Shown piece by piece: positions 5,171-47,368 of a stretch of 64,000 bases of DNA. Below the pieces are notes generated by a model, which made no database searches, was not told where the DNA came from, and saw only the letters and a list, made by a program, of their open reading frames with translations. The first letter of the stretch is position 1. Every line of letters starts with the position of its first letter. This DNA is from Thermoplasmatota archaeon. GTDB lineage: Archaea > Thermoplasmatota > Penumbrarchaeia > JASLWR01. Position numbers and translations under genes: made by a program. The stretch covers positions 1 to 64,000 of the forward strand of contig JASLWR010000003.1 in the NCBI GenBank assembly GCA_030740765.1, given 5' to 3'.

Positions 5171-8100
5171 ATGAGACGATCCAATATGTTCTTGCTCTGC
5201 GCAGTATTCGTCATATTCTTGCTCAATCCCTTTTCCAGTATCTCCACCAATGCGGCAACCCGGCAGGAGGCCAGTTTGGATATAATGGAGGCGAAGATTT
5301 CAGAACCTTCAGAAATTGTCAGGGAGGTTATTGAAATAGGTTTTCCTCAACCGCTCTTTGGCAAAGAGGAATATGCCGGGGAAGAATGGGATACCATTAA
5401 GATGGAAGACACTCTGGCTATTCCCTTACCTGGTCACCCGAGGGTTCCGATAAAAGTTGTTACCATCGAGAACCTTCACCTCTTGAAATCTATAGAAGTT
5501 GAATACTCCGGGATCACATATATTTCCCTCAATCTTGTACCCGCACCCAAGGCCCGCTTACCCTATGAAATTGAGAACTCCGAGTACATTGACAAATCAG
5601 CTTACGGGTCTGATACCTTTCTCCCCGGAGAGGATTACAAAATGTCCTTGCTGGGCGGAGTATGGAAGGACGGCTACCGGTACTGGTCCTATTCTCTCGC
5701 TCTTTTTCCCGTGCGTTTCAACCCATCCCTGAACGAAGCCCAAATATACGACAGTGCCCGTGTGGTGATGAAGTTCGATGGTGATTCTGAAATCGGGGTG
5801 CAGTCATTTGTTTCCGGGGACCGGGAATCAGACCCTGTAACCCCCGGCATAACCCCTTCTACAGATGGCTCAACGCGGTCATCCCGCTCGGGAGAAACAC
5901 CGGATCCGGACTATATCATCATTACTACTTCTACCTTTACCAATCCGCTGGCAAAACTTGCAGCCTGGAAAACGAAAAAGGGAGTTCCATGTGAAGTATA
6001 CTCGACGCAAAATATCTATACATCGTATGAAGGTGTTGACAATCCCGAGAAGATCCGGAACTTCATCAAAGACATGCACAACCAATACGGTATCACTTAT
6101 GTCCTTCTTGCCGGGGATTACAACCATGTACCAGTGAGGCTTTGCAAAGACCCCTCGCCATATCCTGGTTGGGATGATGGCTGGATACCTTCGGATCAGT
6201 ACTACGCTTGTCTCGATCGCACCTGGAACGCAGACGGCGATGCTTACTGGGGCGAGAATGGCGATATACAGGACATATTGTCCGATGTTTATCTCTCAAG
6301 GATCGCCATCAGTTCTTATTCAAGTATGAATGATTGGGCGCAAAGCGTGATAGATTATGAAAAATCGCCCCCTGGAGGTAATTGGATGGAAAAAGTGGTC
6401 CTCATCGGTGCGGACAGCCACCGGACTGGTGACGCGGCAATCCAGTGTGATTACTTGTACGATAAATACCTGAATTCTGCCTTCAAGGATACCGATAAAT
6501 TCTATGAGAATGGGGGAACAATACAGAAATCCGATGTTAAAACATCCCTCAACAGCGGTGCCGGTTATGTGAATTTCGTAGATCATGGGGGCCCGACAGT
6601 GTGGTGCCAGAACGGCGGCAACCAGGTACTATTCAGCAATAATGATGTCAGTACCCTTTCAAACGGCCTTAAGAAACCTCTGATAAGCGGAATGGCTTGT
6701 ATGACCTCCTGGTTCGACGATCCTTCCGGATGCGGATATCAGAATTTCGGTGATTGCATAGGAGAGACTTTCACCGAGAACGCACAGAACAGGGCGATAG
6801 CTTATATCGGTTCATCGAGAAGTGCAACTGCTGTTATCGGCTACGACCAATATGCCTACGGCGCGGGAGGTTTGCAGGAGGATCTCTGCTACCAGCTCGC
6901 AGCGGATAATCTTCATATCGGGGCGACGCATACCAAGGCCAAAGACCATTATGCCTATTCTTTTGGAAACTGGTTCAGCGACACCGAGGAAAGCGATGGC
7001 GAGATACAATCCTGCTGGTTGGAACTCAACATGCTAGGAGAGCCGGAAGTTCCCCTGTGGACGAAAGTTCCGAAGGCTTTCCAGGTGAACGTAACCATTA
7101 CCCAACAGAGGATCAACGTTACTGTAAAAGAAACCGGTACGGGCTCAGGGGTACAGGGAGCGCAAGTTTGCATCCAAGGAAGCGGTCAGTATATGAGGGG
7201 AGTTACCAGCTCCGGGGGCATCATCGGATTCAATAATCCTGTGGTGGAAGGTTCAGCCGACGTGACCGTAACAAAACCCAATTACTACACATACGAGACC
7301 ATGACTCCTTTTATCGATGTGATACCTCCTATCACCGAGTATGCCATCTCTCCGAAAGAATCGAATGGGCTGAACGGGTGGTACAACGAAACACCCACCA
7401 TCAGCCTTTTAAGCGAGGAATGGTCCTCAATTCGTTATTCACTGGATGAGGTGGGAGATGATTTCGTAACTTATACAAAACCAATACGGATCCCCAACGG
7501 AGAGATCACATTCCGTTATTACTCCGAGGATAACTGGGGAAATCCTGAAGTTACAAGAACGAACGTGATTCGGGTGGACAGCATCACTCCTGTGACGATT
7601 GTAGAAGTGGATCCCGAGGATCCTTCAGGCACCAGTGGATGGTATAATTCCATCACCAACGTTTCCTTGATCGCGGGAGAGGACGAAATCGACACGTATT
7701 ATCGCATTCTGCTGGATGGAGAACCCATAGGAGGATTCAGCATTTACACTATTCCTCTTTCGCTCAAGTTGGAGGGGAATATATCGATACAATATTACAG
7801 CAAGGATTCAGCCGGCAACATGGAAGAGTTGTTGGTGGAAGAGCTCCGAATCGACCGGATTCCGCCGGAGGTGTTCATGGACGTTGATCGGGTTCCCGGT
7901 AAAGGGAACTGGTATTCCGAGATTCCTTCCATATCGCTTTCATCCACTGACGAACTTGATATAATCTATTACTATTTCGATGACAACAAACCCCGGCAGT
8001 ACACACGTACTTTCGTGCCAGACGAAGGGACGCATGTTTTACATTGCTACAGCATGGATGCTGCGGGAAATACGGCGGAAGAACGAACAATGGAATTCAA

Positions 8101-9664
8101 GGTGGACACCACCCCTCCTGATGTCACCTGCGTTATATCGCCCCAGCACCCCAATGGATTGAGCAGGTATTACGTAACGATGCCCGAGATCACATTCTTC
8201 TCAGAAGAGAACGTCAGTATAAATTACAGCTGGGATACCGAGGTATTTTACGAATACGACGGGGATATAATAATACCGCCATCGGAAGGTGTGGTCGAGA
8301 TTACCTACTACGGTGTGGATCACGCTGGGAATGTGGGAGATATGGAATCGAATATCCTCATGATAGACATAACGCCCCCTACCACCACTGCATTACTTGA
8401 ACCTGAGGAACCTAACGGGGACGGAGATTGGTACTCCTCCCTTGAAATAGAATTGAACTCACCAATGAAGGATACTGTAGCCATATATTATTATTTCGAG
8501 GATCCCGACGAGAGCGAAATTTATTCTGTTACAATCTCCGGGGATGAGATCCCGGAAGGCATTCACACGCTTGTGTATTACTCCACGGATCGATCCGGCA
8601 ACAAGGAAAGGGAAAACGAGCTTTTGATAAAATACGATTCCAATAGACCAAAACCATATCTGGAGGTCTCAACAGAAAAGGCTGTGGTCGGGGATACGGT
8701 TACAATAAATGCAGGCCGGTCCAAGGATGATTGCGGCGGAATACTGTTGTACCTTGTGGATTTTGGTGATGGGGAAAAAACCCGATGGACAAAGAGAACC
8801 GAATTCACGCATCCGTATTCGGAAGCAGGTCAATACATCGTAAAGCTCCGGGTCAAGGACGAAGCTGGGCATGAGGCATCCGTTGAGGAAACCATTGTTA
8901 TCGATGAATTATCGTTCATGGATACAGTAAATAATTATCGCGGCGAAAATCCCGCAGCTTTCTATGGTATCGTAGGTGCAGTCATGTTTGTCATTCTGGG
9001 ATTGATCGTGGTTTTGGTTCTGGTGCAAAGACGTAAACGAAGAAAAGATCTTGTAACCGACCTGTCACCAGATGATTACGCAGAAGTAAATACGGGGCCA
9101 GATCCATGGGCTCCGTCCACTGTCTCATATCCATCTGAAAGCGATCATTTTCGAGTAAAAACACGAGTGAAGCTACGTCGCACCAGACGGGTGGTGGGTC
9201 GTCGAGAAAATACTTCCCATGGATGGGAACACCGGGGGCGATCTGCCGGTCCCGTGTCAGCGGAACTGGATGGGTGGGAGAACGAGAGGGCTTGGGACTT
9301 CGGTACGAGCGAAAACACCGCGGATTATTATTCGGAAACAGGTGAAAAATCGGAGATTATTGGTGATGGCAGAAGTGGTGAAACCCTTCTATCTCTTCCT
9401 GAGCCCACCCATGGCACATACGAAACGGACACTCTTACGAGTGATCACCATTCTAGGAATGTGGAGGATAAACCTCTGGGTGATATTTTCGATTTCCGCG
9501 CGCCTGCTCGATTCCCTGGATCGGGTGTGTCCGAAGTGGATGAGCGAATTGACCAAAATGGGAACGAGGAATCTTCCGAAGAGAACGCCGATCATCAAGC
9601 CGGGAAGGGTGCCGTATCCGCAAATGATCCCAATGACATGAAGTTGGATAACTGGAATATTTAA
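5171..9664 (+). CDS. C25 family (gingipain-like) cysteine peptidase, cell-surface
   Basis: A 1497-residue secreted, membrane-anchored cysteine peptidase. It has a signal peptide (1-28), a pro-region (about 30-230) and a C25 catalytic domain (about 245-640). The likely catalytic His is H472 in VDHGGP and the nucleophile is C510 in GMACMTSW; both sit where the family has its His and Cys. The domain is followed by a carboxypeptidase-regulatory-like sandwich and five Ig-like repeats of about 85 residues (725-1155), each opening with an NGWYNE-type motif. A PKD domain (about 1165-1245, core VDFGDGEKT), a transmembrane helix (about 1263-1288) and a ~210-residue charged cytoplasmic tail complete it. 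C25 enzymes cleave extracellular proteins after Arg or Lys; specificity cannot be read here. A cytoplasmic tail is not what secreted bacterial gingipains have, so a role at the cell surface is inferred. Domain assignment is firm. Confidence 0.9.
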   Translation: MRRSNMFLLCAVFVIFLLNPFSSISTNAATRQEASLDIMEAKISEPSEIVREVIEIGFPQPLFGKEEYAGEEWDTIKMEDTLAIPLPGHPRVPIKVVTIENLHLLKSIEVEYSGITYISLNLVPAPKARLPYEIENSEYIDKSAYGSDTFLPGEDYKMSLLGGVWKDGYRYWSYSLALFPVRFNPSLNEAQIYDSARVVMKFDGDSEIGVQSFVSGDRESDPVTPGITPSTDGSTRSSRSGETPDPDYIIITTSTFTNPLAKLAAWKTKKGVPCEVYSTQNIYTSYEGVDNPEKIRNFIKDMHNQYGITYVLLAGDYNHVPVRLCKDPSPYPGWDDGWIPSDQYYACLDRTWNADGDAYWGENGDIQDILSDVYLSRIAISSYSSMNDWAQSVIDYEKSPPGGNWMEKVVLIGADSHRTGDAAIQCDYLYDKYLNSAFKDTDKFYENGGTIQKSDVKTSLNSGAGYVNFVDHGGPTVWCQNGGNQVLFSNNDVSTLSNGLKKPLISGMACMTSWFDDPSGCGYQNFGDCIGETFTENAQNRAIAYIGSSRSATAVIGYDQYAYGAGGLQEDLCYQLAADNLHIGATHTKAKDHYAYSFGNWFSDTEESDGEIQSCWLELNMLGEPEVPLWTKVPKAFQVNVTITQQRINVTVKETGTGSGVQGAQVCIQGSGQYMRGVTSSGGIIGFNNPVVEGSADVTVTKPNYYTYETMTPFIDVIPPITEYAISPKESNGLNGWYNETPTISLLSEEWSSIRYSLDEVGDDFVTYTKPIRIPNGEITFRYYSEDNWGNPEVTRTNVIRVDSITPVTIVEVDPEDPSGTSGWYNSITNVSLIAGEDEIDTYYRILLDGEPIGGFSIYTIPLSLKLEGNISIQYYSKDSAGNMEELLVEELRIDRIPPEVFMDVDRVPGKGNWYSEIPSISLSSTDELDIIYYYFDDNKPRQYTRTFVPDEGTHVLHCYSMDAAGNTAEERTMEFKVDTTPPDVTCVISPQHPNGLSRYYVTMPEITFFSEENVSINYSWDTEVFYEYDGDIIIPPSEGVVEITYYGVDHAGNVGDMESNILMIDITPPTTTALLEPEEPNGDGDWYSSLEIELNSPMKDTVAIYYYFEDPDESEIYSVTISGDEIPEGIHTLVYYSTDRSGNKERENELLIKYDSNRPKPYLEVSTEKAVVGDTVTINAGRSKDDCGGILLYLVDFGDGEKTRWTKRTEFTHPYSEAGQYIVKLRVKDEAGHEASVEETIVIDELSFMDTVNNYRGENPAAFYGIVGAVMFVILGLIVVLVLVQRRKRRKDLVTDLSPDDYAEVNTGPDPWAPSTVSYPSESDHFRVKTRVKLRRTRRVVGRRENTSHGWEHRGRSAGPVSAELDGWENERAWDFGTSENTADYYSETGEKSEIIGDGRSGETLLSLPEPTHGTYETDTLTSDHHSRNVEDKPLGDIFDFRAPARFPGSGVSEVDERIDQNGNEESSEENADHQAGKGAVSANDPNDMKLDNWNI

Positions 9665-18091: not shown

Positions 18092-19489
18092 ATGAAAAAA
18101 CGCGTAACGGTTGTAGTTCTCGGTCACGTGGATCACGGTAAGTCAACACTCGTGGGACGCTTTCTGTTCGAAAAAGGCGCAGTTCCCTCCAAAGAGATCG
18201 AGCGCTACGCCGTAATGGGGGCCAAGACGGGAAAGACCAGCTTCAAGTATGCCTGGGTCATGGACAGAAGCGACGAGGCACGAAGGCGAGGGCTCACACT
18301 TGACCTCAACTTCGCCGACGTGGAGACGCGAAAAAGAGAAATACATATCATCGATGCACCGGGTCACAAGAGCTTCTTGAAAAGCATGATAACGGGCACC
18401 ACTGGTGCCGACGCCGCACTCCTGGTGGTGGATTCGCAGGAAGGCATAATGCCCCAGACCAGGGAACATGCTCAGCTCGCAAAGCTGATGGGTATCAATC
18501 ACTGCGTTGTGGTCCTCAACAAGATTGACAAGGTCGGTTACGACCCAGAGGCGATAGGGGGGGCCGCATCCGAACTTATAGATATGCTAATAGACCTGGG
18601 GATCCCAAAGGTGGACGTCATCCCGGTTTCGGCATGGGAAGGACAGAACCTCACTTTGCGCGGGGACGCCATGTCCTGGTACACCGGCCGAACGCTCGAG
18701 GAGGTGTTGGACAACCTGGAACAGAAGGGAACACCTTCGGGGGGTCCGTTCCGGATACCGGTGATGCAGGTGATGAAAATAGGGGGTGTTGGGATCGTGG
18801 CACTGGGGCGGGTGGAGAGTGGGGAGATATCTAAAGGCGATGAAGTGGTCGTGGCCCCTGGAAACAAGATAGGAGTGGCAAAGTCCATAGAGGCCTACGG
18901 GAAGAAAATATCGAAGGCGGTGGCGGGTGAGACCGTAGGAATTGCACTTCGAAACATCGGTCGTTCGGATATTTGCAGGGGGGATGTACTGGGGCCCGTG
19001 GACGACCCTCCGCGCCCTGTTGAGGAGTTCACTGTCAAGATGGTCCTTTTCGGCGATGCGGGTGTGGTGAAGGTGGGTTGGTCTCCCTACATTCACTGCC
19101 ATACCGCAGCAGTACCCGTGAAGATCGTGGGGATCGATATGAAGTACCGGCCCGACAGCGGCGAGGCCGAGGGAGAGGCTGACGCAGGATTCCTGGTAAA
19201 GGGAGACGCAGCGCTCGTTCGTTTCAGGCCGTTAAAGCCCCTGATCATAGAATCGGGTGAGAAGTTGCCGGGCATGGCACGTTTCGCCCTCAGGGCCGGC
19301 AAAACAACCCTGGGAGCCGGATCCTGTGTCTCCATCCGAGCAGCGGAGGGGCAGGGGGTAGCAACGAGCGGACCGAAAACAAAGGGTTTTTCCTACAAAT
19401 ACCAAAAGGTGGGAAAGGCCGCCCGCGACCAGAAGCGGCGAAAGAATAAAGAGAACCTCGACATCTGGGGCAGACCGATCAGGAAGTAG
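18092..19489 (+). CDS. EF1A-like translational GTPase paralogue
   Basis: A 465-residue GTPase of the EF-Tu/EF1A superfamily. The G motifs are complete: GHVDHGKST (P-loop), DAPGHK (G3), NKID (G4) and SAW (G5). The switch-I area reads RSDEARRRGLTLDLNF, comparable to the EF1A segment KEERERGVTID but divergent. Beta-barrel domains II and III follow, then a basic C-terminal tail of about 45 residues (KVGKAARDQKRRKNKEN). The sequence is too divergent to be the housekeeping aEF1A. SelB-like, GTPBP1-like or Hbs1-like roles are possible and cannot be separated here. It ends with TAG, 15 bases before and in frame with the next small gene. Confidence 0.85.
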   Translation: MKKRVTVVVLGHVDHGKSTLVGRFLFEKGAVPSKEIERYAVMGAKTGKTSFKYAWVMDRSDEARRRGLTLDLNFADVETRKREIHIIDAPGHKSFLKSMITGTTGADAALLVVDSQEGIMPQTREHAQLAKLMGINHCVVVLNKIDKVGYDPEAIGGAASELIDMLIDLGIPKVDVIPVSAWEGQNLTLRGDAMSWYTGRTLEEVLDNLEQKGTPSGGPFRIPVMQVMKIGGVGIVALGRVESGEISKGDEVVVAPGNKIGVAKSIEAYGKKISKAVAGETVGIALRNIGRSDICRGDVLGPVDDPPRPVEEFTVKMVLFGDAGVVKVGWSPYIHCHTAAVPVKIVGIDMKYRPDSGEAEGEADAGFLVKGDAALVRFRPLKPLIIESGEKLPGMARFALRAGKTTLGAGSCVSIRAAEGQGVATSGPKTKGFSYKYQKVGKAARDQKRRKNKENLDIWGRPIRK

Positions 19490-35216: not shown

Positions 35217-35375
35217 ATGAGACGCATCGAAGTGAACTCTGGAAAGTTTGTTCTGACCGAGAGCGTGATCGGTTTTTTCAGAAAAACTCCAAACAAGTTC
35301 GGGACAGGCGCAAAGATCGATTGCCCGAAGGAATTCATTGGCAAAACTGTGTATGTGGTTGTTTGCGATGACTGA
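35217..35375 (+). CDS. DUF2080 family transposase-associated protein
   Basis: A 52-residue protein, MRRIEVNSGKFVLTES...FGTGAKIDCPKEFIGKTVYVVVCDD. Its pattern of a short beta segment and an (h)xGKxVxVhh ending is typical of the DUF2080 'transposon-encoded' family common beside archaeal transposases. Start taken at the second ATG because family members begin MRRIEV; the earlier ATG is at 35208. It overlaps the transposase start by 8 bases (ATGACTGA), so translation is coupled. Role unknown; a SpoVT/AbrB-like DNA-binding fold is a guess. Confidence 0.7.
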   Translation: MRRIEVNSGKFVLTESVIGFFRKTPNKFGTGAKIDCPKEFIGKTVYVVVCDD

Positions 35376-36738
35376 GCGTGAGAATTACATACGGCATTTG
35401 GAAGAAACCATTTCAAAGGTTATCGCTGAGAGAAATGAGGCGATCAAACTATCTCAGGAACTCGAGAAAACGATCATTGACTTGGAGAAAAGGCTTAGAT
35501 TTTACGAAAATTCAAATTCTCCTCCGTCCGCCAGAAAAATCCCTGGTAAGAAGGATGAAAATGATGATAAGAAATCCAAAAAGAAGAAGAAGAAACGAGG
35601 TGCACCAAAAGGTCATAGAGGTGCAACACGTCCAAAACCAGAACCCGACGAAATAATTGATGTCATCGCTGAAGAATGCGAGAGATGTGGCAGTCCAAAT
35701 ATACTTGATTTAGAAGATGTCCTCAAAAAAATAATCGAGGACATTCCCCCTCCCAAATTGATCAAAGTGACTCAATTCGATCTTCACAATGTAGTCTGCT
35801 CCGATTGTGGATATAAATTTCTTTCTAAGCATCCAGACTGCCCCACAGAAGGTAGATTCGGCCCATATCTGCTTGTCTATATGACCATGCTGAAGTATCA
35901 GCTGAGAGGAACACTGCGGAAGATTGAAGAATACCTTGATAATCATGATGATTTCCAGATCAGTCCAAAGGGGATACTTGATTCGATCAACCGAGTTGGG
36001 CTATGTTGCAGGAAGGAATATGATCAACTGGTCCAAAAGACCAGATCTGCCAAATGGTTACACATAGACGAGACCGGAATTCACGTAAATGGGGATAAAT
36101 GGTGGCTATGGGCATTTAGGACCGATGAAGATGATGTTCTAATTGTGATCGAAGACTCCAGAGGCGCAAAGGTTCCTGAAAGGATACTGGATGGAAACTG
36201 GGACATACCAGTAATAATAGATGGATGGAGTTCATACAGCAAATTCACGATAGTTCAAAGATGTTGGGCACATCTTCTTAGAAAAGTGGATGCTTTCAAA
36301 GATGTATCTGGAAAAGGCATGGAACTTTCAAAAGAGATACATCGTCGATTCAAGAAACTGCGAAAATTCATCGATTCGAACGCATCGATGGAAGAACGCA
36401 AAAGGAAAAAGAAGATCTGGGACAACGAGATGGAATATCTCGTGAAGAGATATGAAAGCGACAAGAAATTGCATGAACCATTGACATACATAAGAAATGG
36501 CTTGGGGAAATGGTACACTTGTCTCTTGTATCCTGGCATGGAACCGACGAATAATTTGGGGGAGCAGGCCATAAGAGAATCGGTGATCGTTCGCAAGATA
36601 ATTGGAACCTTTCGTTCGGAAACAGGTTCAGAATATTACCAATACATTGCTTCTTTGCTTGCAACGTGGAGACTTCATGGTAAGAATATGTTTGTCGAGC
36701 TTGAAAGAATTATCAGAGAAAATCTCTGCCTGGCGTGA
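35368..36738 (+). CDS. IS66-like transposase
   Basis: A 456-residue transposase. It has an N-terminal coiled coil (about 5-50), a Lys-rich linker and a zinc-binding region with CERCG and CSDCGYKF (about 105-155). The DDE catalytic core contains WLHIDETGIHVNG, VIIDGWSSYSKF and the glutamate in NNLGEQAIRESV. The C-terminus FRSETGSEYYQYIASLLATWR is the usual IS66 ending. Start at ATG 35368 overlaps the DUF2080 stop. Intact and probably active. Confidence 0.93.
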   Translation: MTERENYIRHLEETISKVIAERNEAIKLSQELEKTIIDLEKRLRFYENSNSPPSARKIPGKKDENDDKKSKKKKKKRGAPKGHRGATRPKPEPDEIIDVIAEECERCGSPNILDLEDVLKKIIEDIPPPKLIKVTQFDLHNVVCSDCGYKFLSKHPDCPTEGRFGPYLLVYMTMLKYQLRGTLRKIEEYLDNHDDFQISPKGILDSINRVGLCCRKEYDQLVQKTRSAKWLHIDETGIHVNGDKWWLWAFRTDEDDVLIVIEDSRGAKVPERILDGNWDIPVIIDGWSSYSKFTIVQRCWAHLLRKVDAFKDVSGKGMELSKEIHRRFKKLRKFIDSNASMEERKRKKKIWDNEMEYLVKRYESDKKLHEPLTYIRNGLGKWYTCLLYPGMEPTNNLGEQAIRESVIVRKIIGTFRSETGSEYYQYIASLLATWRLHGKNMFVELERIIRENLCLA

Positions 36739-38193: not shown

Positions 38194-39561
38194 TCAGACC
38201 TTTTCTACCTTGTCAGAGGAATTCTTCCTTATCTTTATTTCCCAATAGCCCTTGCCCCCGTACCACTCGAAAAGACCATATACGTTTACGGTGTCGTTAA
38301 CCGCCAGACTATCCATCTCCTGGCCGTAAACGGTCAGGTTGATATTGAACGGGCCCACAGTATCGTTTACTCCGAATATGTAATTGTAGTTGCTGCTTTT
38401 AGTAACTACAAAAACACTCATGAGCTTTACTGATTTTTCACGATACTCGGTATTGGTGGCGTTGTCGAGAAGAGTGGCTACATCGGTCCCGAGATAAGTG
38501 TAAACTGCAGGGGCGCCCGATCCAAGTTTCGTTATTTTATCATCCGTATCCTTTCGGATCTTGATCTCCCAGTATGAGTCTTTTTCATAATAGATGACCT
38601 GGCCCTGCACCTCTACGAAATCGCCCTCATAGACCGAAGCGATACCGCCCTGGGCGTCATAGTCGGTGTATATTATAATGCTGTTCCCGCTGCCGTCGCT
38701 AACGTTGAATTTATAATTTTTTGGGTTCTCTCCCACAGTGGCATTGGTTATCTTCACGAACTTGTTCTCGTAAGCATCGTGATCGCCCACCAATTTGGCC
38801 AGTGTCACCTCCTCGTATGTATCCACAGTTTCACCGACAATTGAAACATTGTCATCGGAACTTTTCCGTACTTTGATCTCCCAGTCGTTGTAGAACTTGA
38901 CGAACTCACCTGAGATGTCGATCTTGTCGTTCAGGTCGATGTGGGGTGCTTCCACGCCGTATTCGATATAGACCAAAAGATTCTCCGTTGTGCTGTCATC
39001 AGAGACGTTGAATTTCCCACTCTTGTATTTTGTTGTAACTGTGGCATCCTTGATCTCGATCAGCAATCCGATATAGTTCTCCCCGTTTTTCAGGAGTTCA
39101 TCGATTGTAAGTTTTGCGTAGTTCACACCCCCGGATCCGGTAACCTTGACCTCGTCATTCTTGCCCGAGCGGACCGTGATTTCCCAGTACTGGTTCTTGT
39201 ACTGTTCGAAGATTCCTTTTATATCGAGAAAATCACCGGGTTTTAGACCCAGATCTTCATTGTAACCGTACAGAGTAATGGTCTCGGTGGTGCTATCATC
39301 ACTGATAGTGCAAGAATAATCGGACTTTATGCTCATAACCTTGGCGTTCTTCACCTCGACATCTTTTCCGTTATAAGAATAGGGCGTTTCAACCAATTCC
39401 TTTATCGTATACTTGGTATAAACTCCCGTATACGTATTGTCATCATCGCCATCGTCATCTTCGATCACGTCATCGGAATTATCGACATTCACCTCGGAAC
39501 AGCCTGCCATCATGACGGCAAGTACCAATAAAACAGCCAATATCAAATATCTAGCTTTCAT
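38194..39561 (-). CDS. Lipoprotein with four tandem OB-fold-like repeats
   Basis: A 455-residue lipoprotein. The lipobox is VMMAGC with C21, followed by an acidic linker (DDDGDDDN). Four repeats of about 95-105 residues follow (about 48-140, 145-235, 240-335 and 345-455). Each has L(V/L)...Y..K.V.(I/V)....V, a central SDxS/G.(T/N) strand, DxVxVxG.F..Y and a closing YWEIK(I/V)RK, as in nucleic-acid-binding-type OB domains of secreted archaeal and bacterial proteins. GGAAGGTG precedes the start. Ligand unknown. Confidence 0.82.
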   Translation of the reverse strand: MKARYLILAVLLVLAVMMAGCSEVNVDNSDDVIEDDDGDDDNTYTGVYTKYTIKELVETPYSYNGKDVEVKNAKVMSIKSDYSCTISDDSTTETITLYGYNEDLGLKPGDFLDIKGIFEQYKNQYWEITVRSGKNDEVKVTGSGGVNYAKLTIDELLKNGENYIGLLIEIKDATVTTKYKSGKFNVSDDSTTENLLVYIEYGVEAPHIDLNDKIDISGEFVKFYNDWEIKVRKSSDDNVSIVGETVDTYEEVTLAKLVGDHDAYENKFVKITNATVGENPKNYKFNVSDGSGNSIIIYTDYDAQGGIASVYEGDFVEVQGQVIYYEKDSYWEIKIRKDTDDKITKLGSGAPAVYTYLGTDVATLLDNATNTEYREKSVKLMSVFVVTKSSNYNYIFGVNDTVGPFNINLTVYGQEMDSLAVNDTVNVYGLFEWYGGKGYWEIKIRKNSSDKVEKV

Positions 39562-39664: not shown

Positions 39665-39965
39665 CAAAGGTCGACTAAATGAATCGTGAATTTAATTCAC
39701 TTCACTATCGGCCAAGCAACTTCTTGGACAAGACGGGAATGTTGCCAAAGGGAATATTCCCAGTATCGTAAACTCAACGGGTTTCCTGCGGATATCGACG
39801 TTTGCATTTGTGAAAATGTTCGCAGAATCGCAGCACCTGTGAGGGGTGTGCACCCCGAACTAAATAGCGATGCTCGCATCGCTTGTGGGCTTGAGCCCAC
39901 TCGTTTGGGGTGAAGCCCTTTTCAAAGGGCTCGAAGGGACTGATTCTACTGAATTTTCCAAAAAG
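39665..39965 (-). repeat. Modular hairpin array, module A copy 3 with many nested hairpins
   Basis: On the minus strand this has AATTCAGTAGAATCAG, CCCTTCGAGCCC, then nested hairpins GCCCTTTGAAAAGGGC, GTGGGCTCAAGCCCAC and GCGATGCGAGCATCGC. GCTGCGATTCTGCGAACA closes module A. Further out are a CGATATC segment and a GGGAATATTCCC palindrome near 39758. The inner hairpins replace the short loop of the 61421 copy. The 414-base gap between the OB lipoprotein and the ECF operon contains nothing else recognisable. Confidence 0.75.
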
Positions 39966-39975
39966 ACATTTACCG

Positions 39976-40746
39976 TTACGTTTTGTCAACAACGAGTGGA
40001 GGAACTACCTCCCATTCGTACCTCTTCTTGAATCTCTGCAGCACCCACAACAGGGATGGACCCAGCAACAGGGCGAAAATTACGTTTCCTCCTACATGAA
40101 GAAGGTTGAATGGCAGGGCAGGAAGATACGTCTTTCCAATGACAGCTAGGGTTAGGGAGTCCCCCGCCGCAAGAAAGATGCCCAAAGTGTATAGATCGAG
40201 GATCAACCCGTATATCACACCCCAGAACACAGCCAATACCACTAATGTGACCATTCCGGCCTTGGGGTAGAACCGGCCTGCGAGACCCGCCACCATTCCA
40301 CCGGTACCCCAGGCGAATATCTGCCATATTGCCCACGGTCCCATGGGTAAAAAAAAATTCGATGCCAGACCGGTGATGGCCCCCACCATGAACCCCATTC
40401 TCCATCCGAATACCAGGCCAACCGCGAGAATTATCACCGTGCAGGGCTGCACGCTTGGAATCACAACGAAAGGGATGCGGGACGCGGCGCTGAAACTACC
40501 CATAACGCCTACCAGGGCCAATTCCCAGGAGCTTATACTTCGATTCTCAAACTGGAGTGTTATGGAAAACAGAAAAAGCACCATGAACCCAATGAGAGTC
40601 AATCCAAGCTTCTCAACGAGACCTTTCCTAATCCATGAAGGTGTTCCCGGAAAAAATGAAAAGAAGAGATAAGCAGCCATGGCGATTATCAGTGAAAATA
40701 ATAAAATGTCACCGAAATATCCGCTCTTTGGCTCCCCTGATCTCAA
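39976..40746 (-). CDS. ECF transporter substrate-binding (S) component
   Basis: A 256-residue integral membrane protein with about six helices and no ATPase motifs. The segment GSFSAASRIPFVVIPSVQPCTVIIL and the later FFLPMGPWAIWQIFAWGTGGMVAGLAG are typical of the CbrT-like ECF S family. S components bind the vitamin and dock on EcfT/EcfA. Start appears to be TTG at 40746, overlapping the TGA of the ATPase gene. It is the last gene of the five-gene block. Confidence 0.85.
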   Translation of the reverse strand: MRSGEPKSGYFGDILLFSLIIAMAAYLFFSFFPGTPSWIRKGLVEKLGLTLIGFMVLFLFSITLQFENRSISSWELALVGVMGSFSAASRIPFVVIPSVQPCTVIILAVGLVFGWRMGFMVGAITGLASNFFLPMGPWAIWQIFAWGTGGMVAGLAGRFYPKAGMVTLVVLAVFWGVIYGLILDLYTLGIFLAAGDSLTLAVIGKTYLPALPFNLLHVGGNVIFALLLGPSLLWVLQRFKKRYEWEVVPPLVVDKT

Positions 40747-42500
40747 ACTATCGAACCCCCGTTTCGCACAGCATTCTCCTGGCCCCTTTTTCGACTTCTT
40801 ATTCCCGTCCGGGGGGCTATGGCGGAAGGAACACCCTTTTGGGAATGCCTACTGTGACCCGTGGGTTTTTCCTTCGAAGACCATTTCAACTCCCTCGGAC
40901 GAATGATATCCTCCCTGAGTCCCAGCTCCAGAAAACCTCTCGTGGCCAGGTTGACCTGTGGCGAGAACAACAGCGAGCCAGGAAGCACCTTCTTTGGCGG
41001 CCCGTCTGCAAGTATGTTTCCGTTACCGAGAATGATGACGCGGTTGGCGTATGCTGTTATGAATTCGACGTCATGGGTTGCCACTATAGAGGCGAGTTTC
41101 CCCTTCCCCTCCTCATTCAGCATACGAGCTAATATATCCTTCTGTGTATAATCCATTCCTCGAGTTGGTTCATCGAGAGCTAGGACTTTGGGCCGAAGCG
41201 CAAGAATGGAAGCCAGAGCCACCCGCTCCCGTTCTCCGGCCGAAATATCCCGCGGATAGGTATCAAGATGCTCTTCGAGGGATAGAGATTCGATTATCCA
41301 CGCCATATATGATAGGTCTACATCGCTTTTCGCGACCCCGAGAAATATCTCCTTTTCAACTGTTTTCTGGTGGAGGTAGTCGGATGGGTTCTGGGAAAGG
41401 TAGCCGCAGATCTTAGCGAGTTTTGACGTCGGGTGCCGCCTCGTATCCATACCATTTACAGTTACTCGTCCCTGATCCGGCTTCAGAATGCCGTTCATCA
41501 GCTTTAACAAGGTGCTTTTCCCCGCACCGTTCCTGCCCACGAGCGCTATCTTTTCACCTTCCCTTATTCTAAGATCCAGGCCTGAAAGTACTTTACTATT
41601 TCCGTAACTGAAGTCCACGTTAGAGAGATGGATCAAATTGCGTCCGGTCTGAAAGGGGATCGATCTCGAAACATAGCTAAGCTCATTATTCAACAGCGCG
41701 TTGTGCACTATCTTTCTTGCCTCCTTAACAGTGGTTGGAACTTCATTTCCTCGGGTCCCAGACAAATAGGTTATGGGTGGAAGGAAGATACCACCACTCT
41801 TTCTGGCCTTTACAATATAATCATCCATACGGTCATCAAGAACTATTTCCCCATCCTTTAAAAAAACTGCCCGGTCAGCGAAGCGGAAGCATCTTTCAAG
41901 GCGGTGCTCCACGAGAATTATAGTAACTCCTCTCTCCTCATTGAACTTCCTAAGGATCGACAGAATCTCCTCAGCACTCTTGGGATCAAGCTGCGAAGTG
42001 GGCTCGTCCAGCAACAGTATATTGGTGTCCATTGCGATGATGGAAGCCATGGCAAGCTTCTGTTTCTCACCGCCGGACATCTCCGGTATAAACTTCTTAC
42101 GAAAATTTCCTATGTTAGTTATCTCGAGAGATTCCTCGATCCTTCGCTCAATTCCCCCATTTTCAACACCTATATTTTCTAAGCCAAAACGAACCTCGTT
42201 CTCCGGGGAGGTCATCACCAGCTGCGCTTCCGGGTCCTGGAACACCATTCCCAGTAAATCCGCGAACTCCTTGGGACCGTGATTACGGGTATTTCTACCA
42301 TAAATAATCACATCGCCTGATATCTCCCCACCATATAAATGGGGGATCGCACCGGTCAAGGCACGCAGGAGCGTGGATTTTCCCCCGCCGGACGGCCCCA
42401 TTAATAATATAAACTCACCCTCATGAACGGTCATATCGATTCTCTTCAACGCGTCCTTGGCCTGCCCGGGATAACGATAGCTGAGCCCCGTTATCTTCAT
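40743..42500 (-). CDS. ECF transporter ATPase, fused A-A' (two ABC domains)
   Basis: A ~585-residue protein with two complete ABC ATPase domains in one chain. Walker A sites are LMGPSGGGKSTLL and LVGRNGAGKSTLL, ABC signatures MSGGEKQKLA and ISAGERERVA, and Walker B with catalytic Glu LLLDEPTSQLD and LALDEPTRGMD. Bacterial ECF modules usually use two genes, ecfA and ecfA'; here they are fused. Start set at ATG 42500 (MKITGLSYRY), 7 bases after the EcfT stop. It energises uptake with EcfT and the S component. Confidence 0.93.
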   Translation of the reverse strand: MKITGLSYRYPGQAKDALKRIDMTVHEGEFILLMGPSGGGKSTLLRALTGAIPHLYGGEISGDVIIYGRNTRNHGPKEFADLLGMVFQDPEAQLVMTSPENEVRFGLENIGVENGGIERRIEESLEITNIGNFRKKFIPEMSGGEKQKLAMASIIAMDTNILLLDEPTSQLDPKSAEEILSILRKFNEERGVTIILVEHRLERCFRFADRAVFLKDGEIVLDDRMDDYIVKARKSGGIFLPPITYLSGTRGNEVPTTVKEARKIVHNALLNNELSYVSRSIPFQTGRNLIHLSNVDFSYGNSKVLSGLDLRIREGEKIALVGRNGAGKSTLLKLMNGILKPDQGRVTVNGMDTRRHPTSKLAKICGYLSQNPSDYLHQKTVEKEIFLGVAKSDVDLSYMAWIIESLSLEEHLDTYPRDISAGERERVALASILALRPKVLALDEPTRGMDYTQKDILARMLNEEGKGKLASIVATHDVEFITAYANRVIILGNGNILADGPPKKVLPGSLLFSPQVNLATRGFLELGLREDIIRPRELKWSSKEKPTGHSRHSQKGVPSAIAPRTGIRSRKRGQENAVRNGGSIV

Positions 42501-42507
42501 TATTTCT

Positions 42508-43524
42508 CTAATTCCCCCCACCTCCAAGCACTGAGGATACCATCGGTGCTCCCATCATCAGTATCAACAATATGCCTAGAACGGCCTCGTTCGAGCCCAC
42601 CCCCATATCCACAGTATAAGAACTCTTCATCCCCCAACCGCCCAACTGTGTGAGTAATAGCAACAAAAAGATACATGGAAGAATAATGGTGACCATTGAA
42701 AGGGAAGAAAATTCAATGGAACGGAAGAAATGACCCGACTTCCTCTTTTTGAGCACTGTGGTCGGACCAAGCTGCCTGCCGAACCCACGGCATTCCATGG
42801 ATTCCGCGAGCGTGTTCGTTCGTTCTAGAGAATTGGCAAGAAGCGGGATCATCAACGGGATCCGGCGTATCCAACGAAGGAAAGAGTTTCTCTGATCGAG
42901 GGGAATACCTCTCGACACGTATGCTTCGTAGATGTCGTTGGCATCCTTGATCAACGTGGGAAATAATCTCACTGCGATGGATAGGGCCAGTGCCGACCGG
43001 ACCGCTCTTCTGCCGAGCCTCCGTAACAGGTTGTCCGGGTGAACGGTCAGCGAAAAGAGAATGAAAATGGAAAGGCTCAACAACAGTTTCAATACGAAGG
43101 AGATGCCAAACACGACCTCCTCAATGGTTATTATACTGAAAATGCCTTCATCTATGACGATGGGATTCACATTGCCGGTAACTCGTTTTAGGAATTGATT
43201 CAGAAATGGAAGCCATGATTCCTCATGGAAGTATGAGTTTTGCATCAATGCTTCATATAGAGTCGTTTCACCTTGCTGGGAGACCAAGACACTAATAGCG
43301 AAATATACCACGCCCAACACCAGAAATACCTTTAGATACCACAACCAGTTCATGATCTCCCCCGCCCTCCAGAACACCATTGCAATGGACAGCAGACCTG
43401 CGGCCAGTATTACAGGATGATTGATTATCATTACAGACACCAGGGCCCCGCCTGCATAGATGCACTTCGAACCTAAGGGTATGGAATGGATCGAATTGTT
43501 CTTTGGGCTGTATATTGGAATCAT
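42508..43524 (-). CDS. ecfT: ECF transporter transmembrane coupling protein EcfT
   Basis: A 338-residue membrane protein with about six helices. The cytoplasmic region ANSLERTNTLAESMECRGFG carries the A-x-(A/S)MExRGF motif by which EcfT contacts the ATPases, and LALSIAVRLFPTLIKDANDI is another family landmark. A GGGTGGG-rich ribosome site precedes the ATG. It is longer than average because of an extracellular loop of ~60 residues (about 85-145) that could meet the surface partners encoded upstream (inference). Confidence 0.9.
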   Translation of the reverse strand: MIPIYSPKNNSIHSIPLGSKCIYAGGALVSVMIINHPVILAAGLLSIAMVFWRAGEIMNWLWYLKVFLVLGVVYFAISVLVSQQGETTLYEALMQNSYFHEESWLPFLNQFLKRVTGNVNPIVIDEGIFSIITIEEVVFGISFVLKLLLSLSIFILFSLTVHPDNLLRRLGRRAVRSALALSIAVRLFPTLIKDANDIYEAYVSRGIPLDQRNSFLRWIRRIPLMIPLLANSLERTNTLAESMECRGFGRQLGPTTVLKKRKSGHFFRSIEFSSLSMVTIILPCIFLLLLLTQLGGWGMKSSYTVDMGVGSNEAVLGILLILMMGAPMVSSVLGGGGN

Positions 43525-43542
43525 GATTTTTTCCCACCCGCC

Positions 43543-45549
43543 TCATTGGAACTCATTGGTGTATTTCCACAATACTTCGTCCCCGTCCTCAAGGTAATAA
43601 ACGTCACTTGCCATGTTGGCAAATTCGCCGTTTACCCAGTAAAGCCAATTACGGTCGTTCCTGCCATTCTCCACACCCGCTATGGACCTTATGAAGGTCC
43701 CGTAGATATACTCGGATGTCTCTACATCCGTGCCTGCGACATCCATGGCATTGACCAGGCAGTCGAGAACGGTGCCCTTGTCCGAACTGATATTAGTAAA
43801 TGTCCAAACTGAAGAATTACTCGGTCCGGTCTCCATAAGCCATTGGTTTTCCCTGAAGGTCCATAAAGTCTCGTTACCAGGATTTATGGGAGCATCTTCC
43901 CGACCAAAAACTATCTTCAACGTCAGACCAGAACCGAAGCGCGGCGATCCTCTTGAACCCACTCCGGGGATCTGGAGAGAAACTGCCACGGCACAGCTGA
44001 TTACAACCAGAACAGCAAAGAACACGCATATCTTTAGAATCGTCTTCCTTCGTGAGACATCCATTCGTTTCCCTATGGTATCGGCCAAGGACCCCTTCGT
44101 CAAAGCCTTAGGGCCCCCCTCGGATGCTCTCTCCTTTTTACGTCCGATCAAGGACAATCCTGCCAAAGGTACGATGATCATGACCGTTAGAAGAAGCCAA
44201 CGCCCCGGCGCTTCCTTCATGTCCCGACCATCGCTTTCATCTTCCCCGTGTTCAATTTCCATCTTGTCATCCGTTTTGTCGAATTTACCGTCGGAAACAC
44301 AATAAATATATCCGTTGTCCGAAGCGAATATTATACTGCCTCTTCCTATGACTGGAGACGACAATGCCCACTGGTGCGGCGTGATCTTATAGCTAAAATA
44401 TTTATTGCCAGTCTTGTCGAGGAAGTAGAGCGTGGAATGATTGCCACTGAGGTTTATATTCGAAAGGAACACGACACCATTCATGGCAACCGCCGGGGAG
44501 GACTGAATTGGGCCGTTAGCGCGGTATTCCCATTTCATCTCTCCGTCAAGGGAATAACATTTCAGCCATCCCTCGTTGTTTGCCACAAATAATAAATTTC
44601 CATCGCTAGCGGGAGAGGATATGGTTCCTCCGATATGGTTTTCCCAGGCGAGCGTTCCGTTCATATCCACTGCCCTCAACCAGCCGTCCGTTACGATATT
44701 GCCCGAATACGAGGCCCAGGAGAATATTATCTTTTCGCCGACGATGAGCGGCGTTGTGCGGATACGTCCATCCACATGATGTGCCCACAAGAGACTGCCG
44801 TCAGATGCATTTATACAGGAGAGATTGCCCCCGTCATTCCCGATGAACAGATTGCCATCTTTGTAGGCAGGCGAGGTGAAATAGACCGTATTTCCGGTAT
44901 CACGGGACCAGATCTTCTTTCCCTGCATATCGACACAATAGAGATTCCCATCGCCTCCTCCGAATACCAGCCGGTCCCGGACGAAGAGCGGAGACGAAGT
45001 TATGCCGAAGGGAGAGTTTTCCGTCTCAAAGGTGAAACGGGAGGCCCCCGACGTTGCATTGAAAGCATAGAGAGTTCCATCTGAAGAACCCACTGCCACA
45101 AGACCGCCATACACTGCGGGGGATGAAAGCTGAACCTTGGAATCCGATACCTTCACGGACCATATTATTTCGCCCGTTCTTTCCTTGAGACATATCAGGG
45201 AGGAGGGAGATATCTGCTTCTGCGTAAAAAAATCGTATTCACCATTGGTATGAACGTATATCCTTCCGTTCACAACCGCCGGAGACGGATCGATCCAACC
45301 TCCCGAGAGGTCCTTTATCCAGCTAATATTCAGTGTCTCAGTGACGGCTAAATCCGAATATCCCAAGTTGGTCTCATCCGACCGAAAACTGCTCCATTCT
45401 GCTGAAGCTGCCCCTGGAATCCCCACGGTAATTGACAAAACCATGAAAAGGAGAAAGATAGGAAAAATAAGGGATGTCACCCCTCTTCTCACGACGCTTC
45501 CTGTAATGGGACCATTCGTTCGTATGCCTCCATGATCAATTTTTTTCAT
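43543..45549 (-). CDS. PQQ-type beta-propeller membrane protein with C-terminal DUF4430 domain
   Basis: A ~668-residue surface protein. The N-terminal signal ends near AASA. A PQQ/WD-like propeller of about eight blades follows (about 50-430) with repeats of the form GxxxFGGGDGNLYCVDMQGKKIW. Two membrane segments (about 450-470 and 505-525) flank a basic cytoplasmic loop. The final ~120 residues (LTLKIVFGRED...WLYWVNGEFANM...GDEVLWKYTN) form a DUF4430 domain, whose family is described as transcobalamin-like C-terminal. Start set at ATG 45549, with AGAGGGG upstream, overlapping the stop of the next gene. It lies directly before EcfT and is a candidate extracellular substrate receptor. Confidence 0.85.
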   Translation of the reverse strand: MKKIDHGGIRTNGPITGSVVRRGVTSLIFPIFLLFMVLSITVGIPGAASAEWSSFRSDETNLGYSDLAVTETLNISWIKDLSGGWIDPSPAVVNGRIYVHTNGEYDFFTQKQISPSSLICLKERTGEIIWSVKVSDSKVQLSSPAVYGGLVAVGSSDGTLYAFNATSGASRFTFETENSPFGITSSPLFVRDRLVFGGGDGNLYCVDMQGKKIWSRDTGNTVYFTSPAYKDGNLFIGNDGGNLSCINASDGSLLWAHHVDGRIRTTPLIVGEKIIFSWASYSGNIVTDGWLRAVDMNGTLAWENHIGGTISSPASDGNLLFVANNEGWLKCYSLDGEMKWEYRANGPIQSSPAVAMNGVVFLSNINLSGNHSTLYFLDKTGNKYFSYKITPHQWALSSPVIGRGSIIFASDNGYIYCVSDGKFDKTDDKMEIEHGEDESDGRDMKEAPGRWLLLTVMIIVPLAGLSLIGRKKERASEGGPKALTKGSLADTIGKRMDVSRRKTILKICVFFAVLVVISCAVAVSLQIPGVGSRGSPRFGSGLTLKIVFGREDAPINPGNETLWTFRENQWLMETGPSNSSVWTFTNISSDKGTVLDCLVNAMDVAGTDVETSEYIYGTFIRSIAGVENGRNDRNWLYWVNGEFANMASDVYYLEDGDEVLWKYTNEFQ

Positions 45550-47368
45550 TCCCCTCTTTCTCCGATTCCACATTAGTCCCGGTATCAGTCGTCTTAACCT
45601 TTTTCCATATCAACAGAACACCAAACAGAATCACCACCGTGATCACAACTATGATCAGGATAATAATATATTGAGTTCCCCCCTCCTCGACATTTTCTTC
45701 GCCCAGTCCCTTTACTGTGGCCATTGGAGCGAATATGGTCAGATGAGTGACATTGGCCCATACAATATTCTTTCCCGGTTCGACGGTAGTGTCCTCAACC
45801 CGTTCCCACTTACTTGAAGACACGTTCCAGAAGTAAAGTGCCAGTGTTTCCTCGTCTGCCCCTTTGGGGAGTTGCACATCATTATACGGTATTTCGATAT
45901 CCATACATTCCAATTCATTCAAATTGATACTCATAAAGAATCCCAGATGCTCGAAAGACGGCCCGATATCACCGGTTTTTTTACTTGCCTCTTCAAAAGT
46001 CATAGCACTGGCCACAAGTGTACCATTACCAAGAACGGTGATCTTCGCCATGCCAAATCCGTCTGTTTTGTCAAGATAAAACGTTTCCGAGGTTCCCGGT
46101 TTGATCTCCAGAACTACCTGCTTTCCTGAGAATTCACCTGCGTTCTTTCGGTCCAACCACAGATTCCTGTTTCCGGGTGACGATGAGTTGGCTGCCGTGG
46201 ACATGGACGATACTCCCATTGTGGTAATGAAATGATATGTGAAATTGTTCCGGACGTACAGCTCCGCAATCCACCACGTTTTTTCTATTGGATTCTGGAT
46301 CAGAGCATAGCTTTGATCTCCGATGTGGAACGATATTTCCGTGGGGTAATTATATTCAGTCTCCACGGTCAGATTTATTTCATATGTGTAGTTCCCCATG
46401 TATTCTATAGCCCGTTCCGTGAGCTTAGGCTGAAATCTTTCCGGTGCAGGAAAAGGGTTTTTGGGGTTCGCAACTGGCAAGGGATATCCCCAAACAGTGT
46501 AGTACAGGGCTAGGGCAACGCCTTCTCTCATGGACAAATCCCCGGCACCCACATCCGCATAATGCCAGCTACCGTTTACGAATTCCAAAACGGCCCAAAA
46601 CCAATTTCCCGTCCCTTCGGTACCGTCAACTCCTGAAATGAATGGGCCGTAAGTGCTGTCCACCACATTAATACCAAGCCCAAGCTCAGACGCTGCCTTC
46701 TCGAAGGCGGTTATCGCTACCACCTGGCGGGCTGCATCGGTTGCATTGGTGGGAACCACTACCTGTTCCGGAGCTGCCCACACCCCCTCCAGTGTCACGT
46801 CTTCCCAACGGTATGTCCCGTTACCGAAATCGATCAAAATGTCCGAATGGATCAGATCAGGATCTTTTTTCGTGGGTGTAGCCACAGGCGGTGAGTCACC
46901 CCAATTGTCGTAAAGCCAGGCAATGGACCCCCCGTCATTAATTTCAAGTTGCCCCGCCCCAACGGAGGAAGGTGACCAGATATCCAGGGTGTCATTCCAG
47001 TAGTACAATATCCAGGATTCGGACCAATCGTCTGTATTGTTAACCTCGTTGATACCGTTTACGAAAACACCAAAATCGGAAGTCGAATAATTAAATTCAA
47101 ATCCCAGTTTTTCACAGGCCTTCTCAGTGGCATTGAAAGCTGAATTATTATCGGTAGTAAGATTGAATACGCTCCAGTAATACTCAGCGTTCCCAAAATC
47201 GATCAGAACGCTTACACTAAGGTTCCCTCTCGTTGCCTGGGCATCGATATTTGGGATATTTCCGACCCCTGCTGAATCAAATTTATTTCTATCGGAATGG
47301 GATATGGCTCCCATCGTCATAAGGAATAATCCGATTATGAGCAGAATTGATAGCACTCTATTATTCAT
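45536..47368 (-). CDS. Surface protein with two DUF4430-like domains and C-terminal membrane anchor
   Basis: A ~610-residue protein. Start at ATG 47368 with GAGGGTG upstream; the signal helix is RVLSILLIIGLFLMTMGAIS. Two DUF4430-like domains follow (about 35-145 and 165-290), each with VLIDFGNxxYxW, FN..(A/T)xEKAxxxLG and (S)W.L.YWN..W motifs. A beta-rich region (about 300-560) resembles archaeal PGF-pre-PGF-type surface domains, and a transmembrane helix (about 575-598) anchors a short basic tail. It is the first gene of the ECF operon, divergent from bud32. Proposed to capture a corrinoid or similar ligand for the ECF transporter. Confidence 0.85.
   Translation of the reverse strand: MNNRVLSILLIIGLFLMTMGAISHSDRNKFDSAGVGNIPNIDAQATRGNLSVSVLIDFGNAEYYWSVFNLTTDNNSAFNATEKACEKLGFEFNYSTSDFGVFVNGINEVNNTDDWSESWILYYWNDTLDIWSPSSVGAGQLEINDGGSIAWLYDNWGDSPPVATPTKKDPDLIHSDILIDFGNGTYRWEDVTLEGVWAAPEQVVVPTNATDAARQVVAITAFEKAASELGLGINVVDSTYGPFISGVDGTEGTGNWFWAVLEFVNGSWHYADVGAGDLSMREGVALALYYTVWGYPLPVANPKNPFPAPERFQPKLTERAIEYMGNYTYEINLTVETEYNYPTEISFHIGDQSYALIQNPIEKTWWIAELYVRNNFTYHFITTMGVSSMSTAANSSSPGNRNLWLDRKNAGEFSGKQVVLEIKPGTSETFYLDKTDGFGMAKITVLGNGTLVASAMTFEEASKKTGDIGPSFEHLGFFMSINLNELECMDIEIPYNDVQLPKGADEETLALYFWNVSSSKWERVEDTTVEPGKNIVWANVTHLTIFAPMATVKGLGEENVEEGGTQYIIILIIVVITVVILFGVLLIWKKVKTTDTGTNVESEKEGNEKN

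What the first reader, a model, noticed from the sequence alone, without database searches (positions are those of the whole stretch)
39976..47368. ECF transporter operon with transcobalamin-like surface receptors
Five adjacent minus-strand genes with overlaps or short gaps encode two surface proteins with DUF4430 domains (one also a PQQ-type propeller), then EcfT, a fused EcfA-A' and a CbrT-like S component. DUF4430 is described as transcobalamin-like, and CbrT-type S components take up cobalamin. I infer a dedicated archaeal corrinoid (or related tetrapyrrole/metal-cofactor) capture-and-uptake system in which membrane-anchored receptors present the ligand to an ECF transporter, a step ECF systems usually lack.
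Basis: partly seen in the sequence, partly recalled or inferred. Interest (0 to 1): 0.75.

Follow-up and report, generated by a model that had tools for sequence, protein, structure and literature searches.

The report
Archaeal vitamin B12 capture-and-import operon
Five neighbouring genes in an archaeon that needs vitamin B12 but apparently cannot make it encode cell-surface proteins related to our own B12 carrier (transcobalamin) plus a B12-type membrane importer; this is a well-supported example of a system predicted in 2007, and whether the surface proteins really hand B12 to the importer is still untested.

Summary
In detail: five tightly packed minus-strand genes (39976-47368) encode two membrane-anchored surface proteins with transcobalamin-like (SLBB/DUF4430) domains, EcfT, a fused EcfA-A' and an S component. 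There are three SLBB domains, not two. The corrinoid reading holds up. The S-component family matches only the B12 S component CbrT among solved structures (E=5e-34). The SLBB domain folds like the beta domain of human transcobalamin. The host genome has adenosylcobalamin-dependent mutase genes, MeaB and a BtuR-type adenosyltransferase, but no CobS, CbiB, CbiC or BtuC-type permease was found. In two Bacillaceae genomes the homologous SLBB-lipoprotein and S-component pair sits directly behind a cobalamin riboswitch. The order SLBB-EcfT-EcfAA'-S is conserved in at least nine other archaeal families of the phylum. The idea is not new: Burroughs et al. (2007) described such surface proteins, including beta-propeller fusions and paralogous pairs, in CbiO/CbiQ operons and proposed B12 scavenging, but left the archaeal ligand open because many archaea make B12. 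This locus helps close that gap. Not shown: ligand binding, and hand-over from receptor to S component. Verdict: a new, well-supported member of a known kind, with an unusual domain arrangement.

The parts
45536..47368 (-). Gene 1, 610 aa: signal peptide, two tandem SLBB (DUF4430) domains, extracellular C-terminal region, C-terminal TM anchor (aa ~568-586)
   Evidence: model
46898..47221 (-). SLBB domain 1 of gene 1; fold of the transcobalamin beta domain
   Evidence: Pfam DUF4430 3.1e-6; Foldseek top hit 5no0, TMt 0.84, E 9.3e-6
46487..46855 (-). SLBB domain 2 of gene 1, divergent and missed by Pfam
   Evidence: i-Evalue 4e-10; no Pfam hit; sequence resemblance to domain 1
43543..45549 (-). 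Gene 2, 668 aa: signal peptide, beta-propeller, TM (~450-468), charged linker, TM (~506-524), extracellular SLBB domain
44287..45396 (-). PQQ/BamB-type beta-propeller of gene 2
   Evidence: (2.6e-39), model pLDDT mostly 90 or more, Foldseek BamB-like
43552..43929 (-). C-terminal SLBB domain of gene 2
   Evidence: Pfam DUF4430 6.7e-13; profile A2 finds transcobalamin-1 in PDB, E 1.2e-7
42508..43524 (-). EcfT (CbiQ family) transmembrane coupling component
   Evidence: PF02361 4.6e-17
40743..42500 (-). Fused EcfA-EcfA' ATPase; two Walker A (GPSGGGKST, GRNGAGKST) and two Walker B/DEP motifs
   Evidence: sequence; two ABC_tran; TIGR04520 6.9e-105 over cut-off
39976..40746 (-). CbrT-type S component (start TTG 40746, 4-base overlap with the ATPase gene)
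   Evidence: CbrT 6fnp 1.1e-10 with the single sequence, 5.4e-34 with the family profile

Best explanation
A dedicated ECF-type importer for complete corrinoids (cobalamin and other cobamides) in a B12-dependent archaeon that seems unable to make them. Membrane-anchored surface proteins bear three transcobalamin-like SLBB domains, one protein with a beta-propeller, and capture the corrinoid outside the membrane. The CbrT-type S component binds it and carries it across by docking on EcfT, powered by the fused EcfA-A'. Inside, BtuR adenosylates it for methylmalonyl-CoA-mutase-type enzymes. Shown here: gene content and order, family and fold assignments, the host's B12 genotype, and cobalamin-riboswitch control of bacterial homologues. 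Inferred: corrinoid binding by each domain, direct hand-over from SLBB to S component, the propeller as scaffold or cell-wall tether.
For: S component: CbrT is the only strong PDB match by sequence and by profile (the next hit, 4hzu, E=0.057). SLBB: profile hits transcobalamin-1, 3u7z, transcobalamin-2 and intrinsic factor; the model's first 19 PDB matches are transcobalamins, haptocorrin, intrinsic factor and 3u7z. Isolated human transcobalamin beta domain binds cobalamin and cobinamide (PMC5599065). Two Bacillaceae loci: cobalamin riboswitch (122 and 120 bits) directly upstream of a DUF4430 gene and the CbrT-like gene. Host: mutase large subunit 3e-191, small B12-binding subunits, MeaB, BtuR 8.6e-61; no CobS, CbiC, CbiB or FecCD. 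Synteny in 18 loci. In 57 relatives, none of 6 B12 makers has DUF4430 (p=0.010 by genome, 0.014 by family), and DUF4430 and FecCD are complementary (p=0.003 and 0.008).
Against: No binding or transport data. No cobalamin riboswitch was found in the window, and the archaeal operon is not next to a B12 gene. The genome is 94% complete, so absences are not absolute. Four relatives carry both CobS and the S component, so the system also occurs in probable B12 makers. In the larger sample the S/CobS exclusion (p=7e-19 by genome) vanishes when counted by family (p=1.0, approximate family total). Seventeen of 29 DUF4430 genomes show no match to this S component, so SLBB proteins may serve other routes or ligands too.
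Confidence: 0.82

Rival explanations
1. The system imports corrinoids, but the SLBB proteins do not hand over ligand. They store or concentrate B12 at the surface or serve as a sensor, and the S component picks B12 up directly, as L. delbrueckii CbrT does without a receptor.
For: Lactobacillus CbrT takes up cobalamin without a described partner protein (PMC5997447); ECF S components bind with very high affinity on their own (PMC7299338); no direct evidence of SLBB-S contact here.
Against: SLBB genes are kept directly next to S or T genes across archaeal families and in Bacillaceae, even where the ECF module is elsewhere.
Confidence: 0.3
2. The ligand is another tetrapyrrole or a corrinoid precursor (heme, cobinamide) rather than complete cobamides.
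For: CbrT and the transcobalamin beta domain also bind cobinamide (PMC5997447, PMC5599065); an unrelated ECF transporter imports heme (PMC7299338); Burroughs et al. suggested a distinct metabolite for archaea (PMC1796856).
Against: The host shows no CobS or CbiB, so cobinamide could not be completed; bacterial homologues sit behind a cobalamin riboswitch; the S component matches CbrT only.
Confidence: 0.1
3. A cobalt or nickel ECF transporter (Cbi/Nik type), as the CbiQ label of EcfT might suggest.
For: EcfT falls in Pfam CbiQ, a label covering many EcfT proteins; NikKMLQO systems have extra components too (PMC2667541).
Against: The S component is CbrT-like, with no CbiM/NikM match reported. 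Imported cobalt would be useless for B12 without the synthesis genes.
Confidence: 0.04

Closest known systems
SLBB (transcobalamin-like clade) surface proteins in CbiO/CbiQ operons, Burroughs et al. 2007 (PMC1796856)
   Same: Secreted SLBB proteins, some with beta-propeller, often with a second paralogous SLBB protein, next to CbiO- and CbiQ-like genes; B12 scavenging proposed; archaeal examples included.
   Different: There the archaeal ligand was left open because many archaea make B12. Here the host lacks the B12 synthesis genes tested, the S component is identified as CbrT-type, and the propeller and C-terminal SLBB are fused in one protein.
ECF-CbrT of Lactobacillus delbrueckii (PMC5997447, PDB 6fnp)
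   Same: CbrT-type S component working with EcfT and two EcfA ATPases.
   Different: Lactobacillus uses a shared group II module and has no described SLBB receptor; here module, S component and receptors form one operon and A-A' are fused.
Transcobalamin, haptocorrin and intrinsic factor (animals)
   Same: SLBB/beta domain of the same fold (TMt 0.84 to 5no0).
   Different: No alpha/alpha-toroid domain found here; instead tandem SLBB domains or SLBB plus beta-propeller, anchored in the membrane.
NikKMLQO nickel/cobalt ECF transporters (PMC2667541)
   Same: ECF-type importer with additional components (K and L) besides M, Q and O.
   Different: Different S component and accessory domains; metal rather than corrinoid substrate.
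BtuCDF
   Same: Imports B12; partly complementary distribution in relatives.
   Different: Type II ABC importer with soluble BtuF; unrelated transmembrane proteins; no FecCD match in the host.

Membership tests
CbrT-type (cobalamin) ECF S component | Sequence membership with CbrT rather than another vitamin S family | tested here: met
   6fnp is the only strong PDB match: 1.1e-10 single, 5.4e-34 profile; next 4hzu 0.057
CbrT-type (cobalamin) ECF S component | Family-conserved residues shared with CbrT | tested here: met
   R90, P97, QPxT, SN, GxW, Q142, H217, N221 conserved in alignment A1 and present in 6fnp; W146 is Y there
CbrT-type (cobalamin) ECF S component | Binds and transports cobalamin | not testable with these tools
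   needs binding or uptake assay
Group I ECF transporter (dedicated module) | S, T and two ATPase domains encoded together | tested here: met
   window 39976-43524; conserved in 18 relatives
[quoted passage not shown]
   Pfam PF14478 over cut-off in both proteins; profile-to-PDB transcobalamin-1 1.2e-7; Foldseek top 19 hits
SLBB / transcobalamin-like clade (DUF4430) | Extracellular, anchored location | tested here: met
   hydropathy only: N-terminal signal segments and TM anchors; no topology experiment
SLBB / transcobalamin-like clade (DUF4430) | Corrinoid contacts conserved | not tested
   no docking or contact-residue comparison was made
Full transcobalamin / intrinsic factor architecture | Alpha/alpha toroid plus SLBB | tested here: not met
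   no toroid domain by Pfam; propeller or second SLBB instead
PQQ-dependent enzyme | Full-length match to a PQQ dehydrogenase model above curated cut-off | tested here: not met
   TIGR03075 40 bits against cut-off 480; structure closest to designed propellers and BamB

The most novel reading that the evidence does not exclude
ECF vitamin transporters can have dedicated surface receptors: SLBB domains capture the corrinoid and pass it directly onto a CbrT-type S component, possibly by clamping it between SLBB and S component much as transcobalamin clamps it between its two domains. This would be a substrate-delivery step not described for vitamin ECF transporters, shared by archaea and Bacillaceae.
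Probability: 0.5. Interest if true: 0.65.

Novelty: new member of a known kind. Interest (0 to 1): 0.42.

Why it matters
It gives a concrete ligand (corrinoids) and a concrete S component to a widespread archaeal surface system whose archaeal substrate was left open in 2007, and offers a plausible B12 uptake route for many archaea in a phylum where most genomes sampled appear to use B12 but few show the tested synthesis genes. It also makes testable whether vitamin ECF transporters can use extracellular receptors.

Tried and rejected
Considered: riboflavin specificity from the Pfam name ECF-ribofla_trS (rejected: CbrT is the only strong solved match). Cobalt specificity from the CbiQ label (rejected: S component is not CbiM-like). 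PQQ enzyme (rejected: far below cut-offs, BamB-like propeller). The propeller being B12-specific (no evidence). A riboswitch in the window (none at Rfam gathering thresholds). The genome-level exclusion of CobS and the S component (7e-19) is not used as main evidence because it disappears when counted by family. In the tree of S components CbrT and several rows have long branches, so no claim about horizontal transfer is made. My first SLBB seed held three wrongly oriented sequences; Pfam scans and the rebuilt alignment give the same domain calls for the loci re-checked. The model of protein 1 is reliable only for SLBB domain 1 (mean pLDDT 44). Single-sequence PDB searches with the SLBB domains found nothing; only the profile and the fold did.

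Full report
WHAT IS THERE. Five minus-strand genes between 39976 and 47368 form one tight unit with overlaps of 14 and 4 bases and gaps of 18 and 7 bases. Gene 1 (610 aa) has a signal segment, DUF4430 at residues 76-154, and a C-terminal membrane anchor. Gene 2 (668 aa) has a signal segment, a beta-propeller, two membrane segments and a C-terminal DUF4430 domain. Then come EcfT (CbiQ family, 4.6e-17), a fused EcfA-A' with two complete ATPase motif sets, and an S component. The upstream neighbours on the other strand are archaeal Bud32 (TIGR03724, over cut-off) and an XTP/dITP diphosphatase, so the contig is archaeal.

Gene 1 carries a second, divergent SLBB domain (residues about 217-293; i-Evalue 4e-10 with a profile from which it was left out; Pfam misses it). 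The operon therefore has three SLBB domains. Gene 2 looks like a fusion. In relatives its propeller part aligns to one gene (SLBB + propeller + C-terminal anchor; for example L112:8437-10122, E=2e-62) and its C-terminal part to the next gene (anchor + SLBB; L112:7922-8440, E=7e-21).

S COMPONENT. Pfam calls it ECF-ribofla_trS, which is not decisive. Against all PDB chains the single sequence finds CbrT (6fnp, 1.1e-10) and otherwise only marginal hits. A profile of 14 relatives finds CbrT at 5.4e-34 and then 4hzu at 0.057. Residues invariant in the 14-sequence alignment (R90, P97, P101, S129, G136, W138, Q142, H217, N221) are also in CbrT; W146 is Y there.

SLBB DOMAINS. A profile of 14 SLBB domains from these operons and the Bacillaceae loci finds transcobalamin-1 (1.2e-7), the Ruminococcus DUF4430 structure 3u7z, transcobalamin-2 and intrinsic factor in PDB. 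The predicted SLBB domain 1 (the only confident part of that model) has as its first 19 PDB matches transcobalamins, haptocorrin, intrinsic factor and 3u7z; the best, 5no0, is the human transcobalamin beta domain alone (TMt 0.84, rmsd 2.2). That isolated beta domain binds cobalamin and cobinamide (PMC5599065), so absence of the alpha/alpha toroid does not rule out binding. The propeller model is BamB-like.

HOST GENOTYPE. The 94%-complete genome has no match to CobS, CbiC, CbiB or FecCD/BtuC-type permease. It has a methylmalonyl-CoA-mutase-type large subunit (3e-191), two B12-binding small subunits, MeaB and a B12-binding radical SAM protein, and a BtuR-type adenosyltransferase (8.6e-61). This is the genotype of an organism that uses adenosylcobalamin and must import it. 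Without CobS and CbiB it should need complete cobamides rather than cobinamide (inference).

COMPARATIVE EVIDENCE. In 57 relatives, DUF4430 occurs in none of 6 genomes with CobS or CbiC and in 29 of the other 51 (p=0.010; by family p=0.014). DUF4430 and strong FecCD matches are complementary (p=0.003; by family p=0.008). All 10 families with the S component also have DUF4430 (p=0.0035). In 392 genomes of the phylum the S component (E<1e-20) is in about 163 and CobS in 90, with four in common (counted by hand from the tables); the genome-level p of 7e-19 is driven by a few large families and disappears by family, so it is not used as main evidence. Eighteen fetched loci from nine other families keep SLBB-EcfT-EcfAA'-S in this order. 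In two families with many small genomes the SLBB and S genes stay adjacent while the ECF module lies elsewhere.

RIBOSWITCH EVIDENCE. The only two hits of the GTDB scan with this S component were Bacillaceae. Both have a full-length cobalamin riboswitch (122.2 and 119.7 bits) directly upstream of a gene encoding a DUF4430 protein with a lipobox-like signal (LVGC), followed at once by the CbrT-like gene. This ties the SLBB-CbrT pair to B12 independently of the archaeal genomics.

MECHANISM. Best reading: surface SLBB proteins collect corrinoids near the membrane; the S component receives and translocates them with EcfT and EcfA-A'. Steps shown: gene content, families, fold, host need, bacterial B12 regulation. 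Steps inferred: binding by these particular domains, hand-over, role of the propeller. The hand-over is about as likely as not; Lactobacillus CbrT works without a described partner of this kind (PMC5997447).

PRIOR ART. Burroughs et al. 2007 (PMC1796856) described transcobalamin-like SLBB surface proteins, including beta-propeller fusions and second paralogous SLBB proteins, in operons with CbiO- and CbiQ-like genes, noted that the bacteria concerned usually lack B12 synthesis, and proposed B12 scavenging; for archaea they suggested a possibly different metabolite. No paper was found in the library that joins SLBB proteins with CbrT in archaea, but the library is incomplete. The finding is therefore a new, better-evidenced member of a known kind; its value is in resolving the archaeal ligand question and making receptor-assisted ECF transport testable.

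Noticed in passing
L003:2275-3526 and L004:4578-5794: Bacillaceae SLBB lipoprotein plus CbrT-like S gene directly behind a cobalamin riboswitch: a bacterial version of the same pair, convenient for bench tests.
   Followed up: yes
L037, L038, L039, L040, L046 (families f18, f28): SLBB gene directly beside the CbrT-like gene, next to GatE-like and Pth2-like genes (recognised by eye), with no ECF module nearby: the pair occurs without linked EcfT/EcfA.
   Followed up: partly
L113-L116 (genomes G212, G275, G167, G247): Four genomes carry both CobS and the S component; the full SLBB-ECF operon is seen in L113-L115 (L116 is cut). Import in probable B12 makers is unexplained.
   Followed up: partly
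genomes G009, G011, G012, G018, G044, G053: No synthesis marker, strong FecCD, DUF4430 or single-sequence S match, although four of them have B12-binding proteins; incomplete genomes or an unknown uptake route.
   Followed up: no
window 5171-9664 (+): Large surface protein with a gingipain-type C25 peptidase domain, PKD and Ig-like domains in an archaeon.
   Followed up: partly
window 18092-19489 (+): EF-1alpha-like GTPase scoring below the curated cut-offs for EF-1alpha (449 of 502 and 413 of 540 bits): probably a divergent paralogue.
   Followed up: no
window 39830-39930: Near-perfect palindrome GTGGGCTCAAGCCCAC and further short hairpins just after the operon; no second copy in the window. 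Terminator or palindromic element.
   Followed up: partly
window 35338-36738 (+): IS66-family transposase about 3 kb downstream of the operon.
   Followed up: no
window 38194-39561 (-): Lipoprotein-like protein with weak OB-fold / DUF5666 matches and apparently repeated units, downstream of the operon.
   Followed up: no
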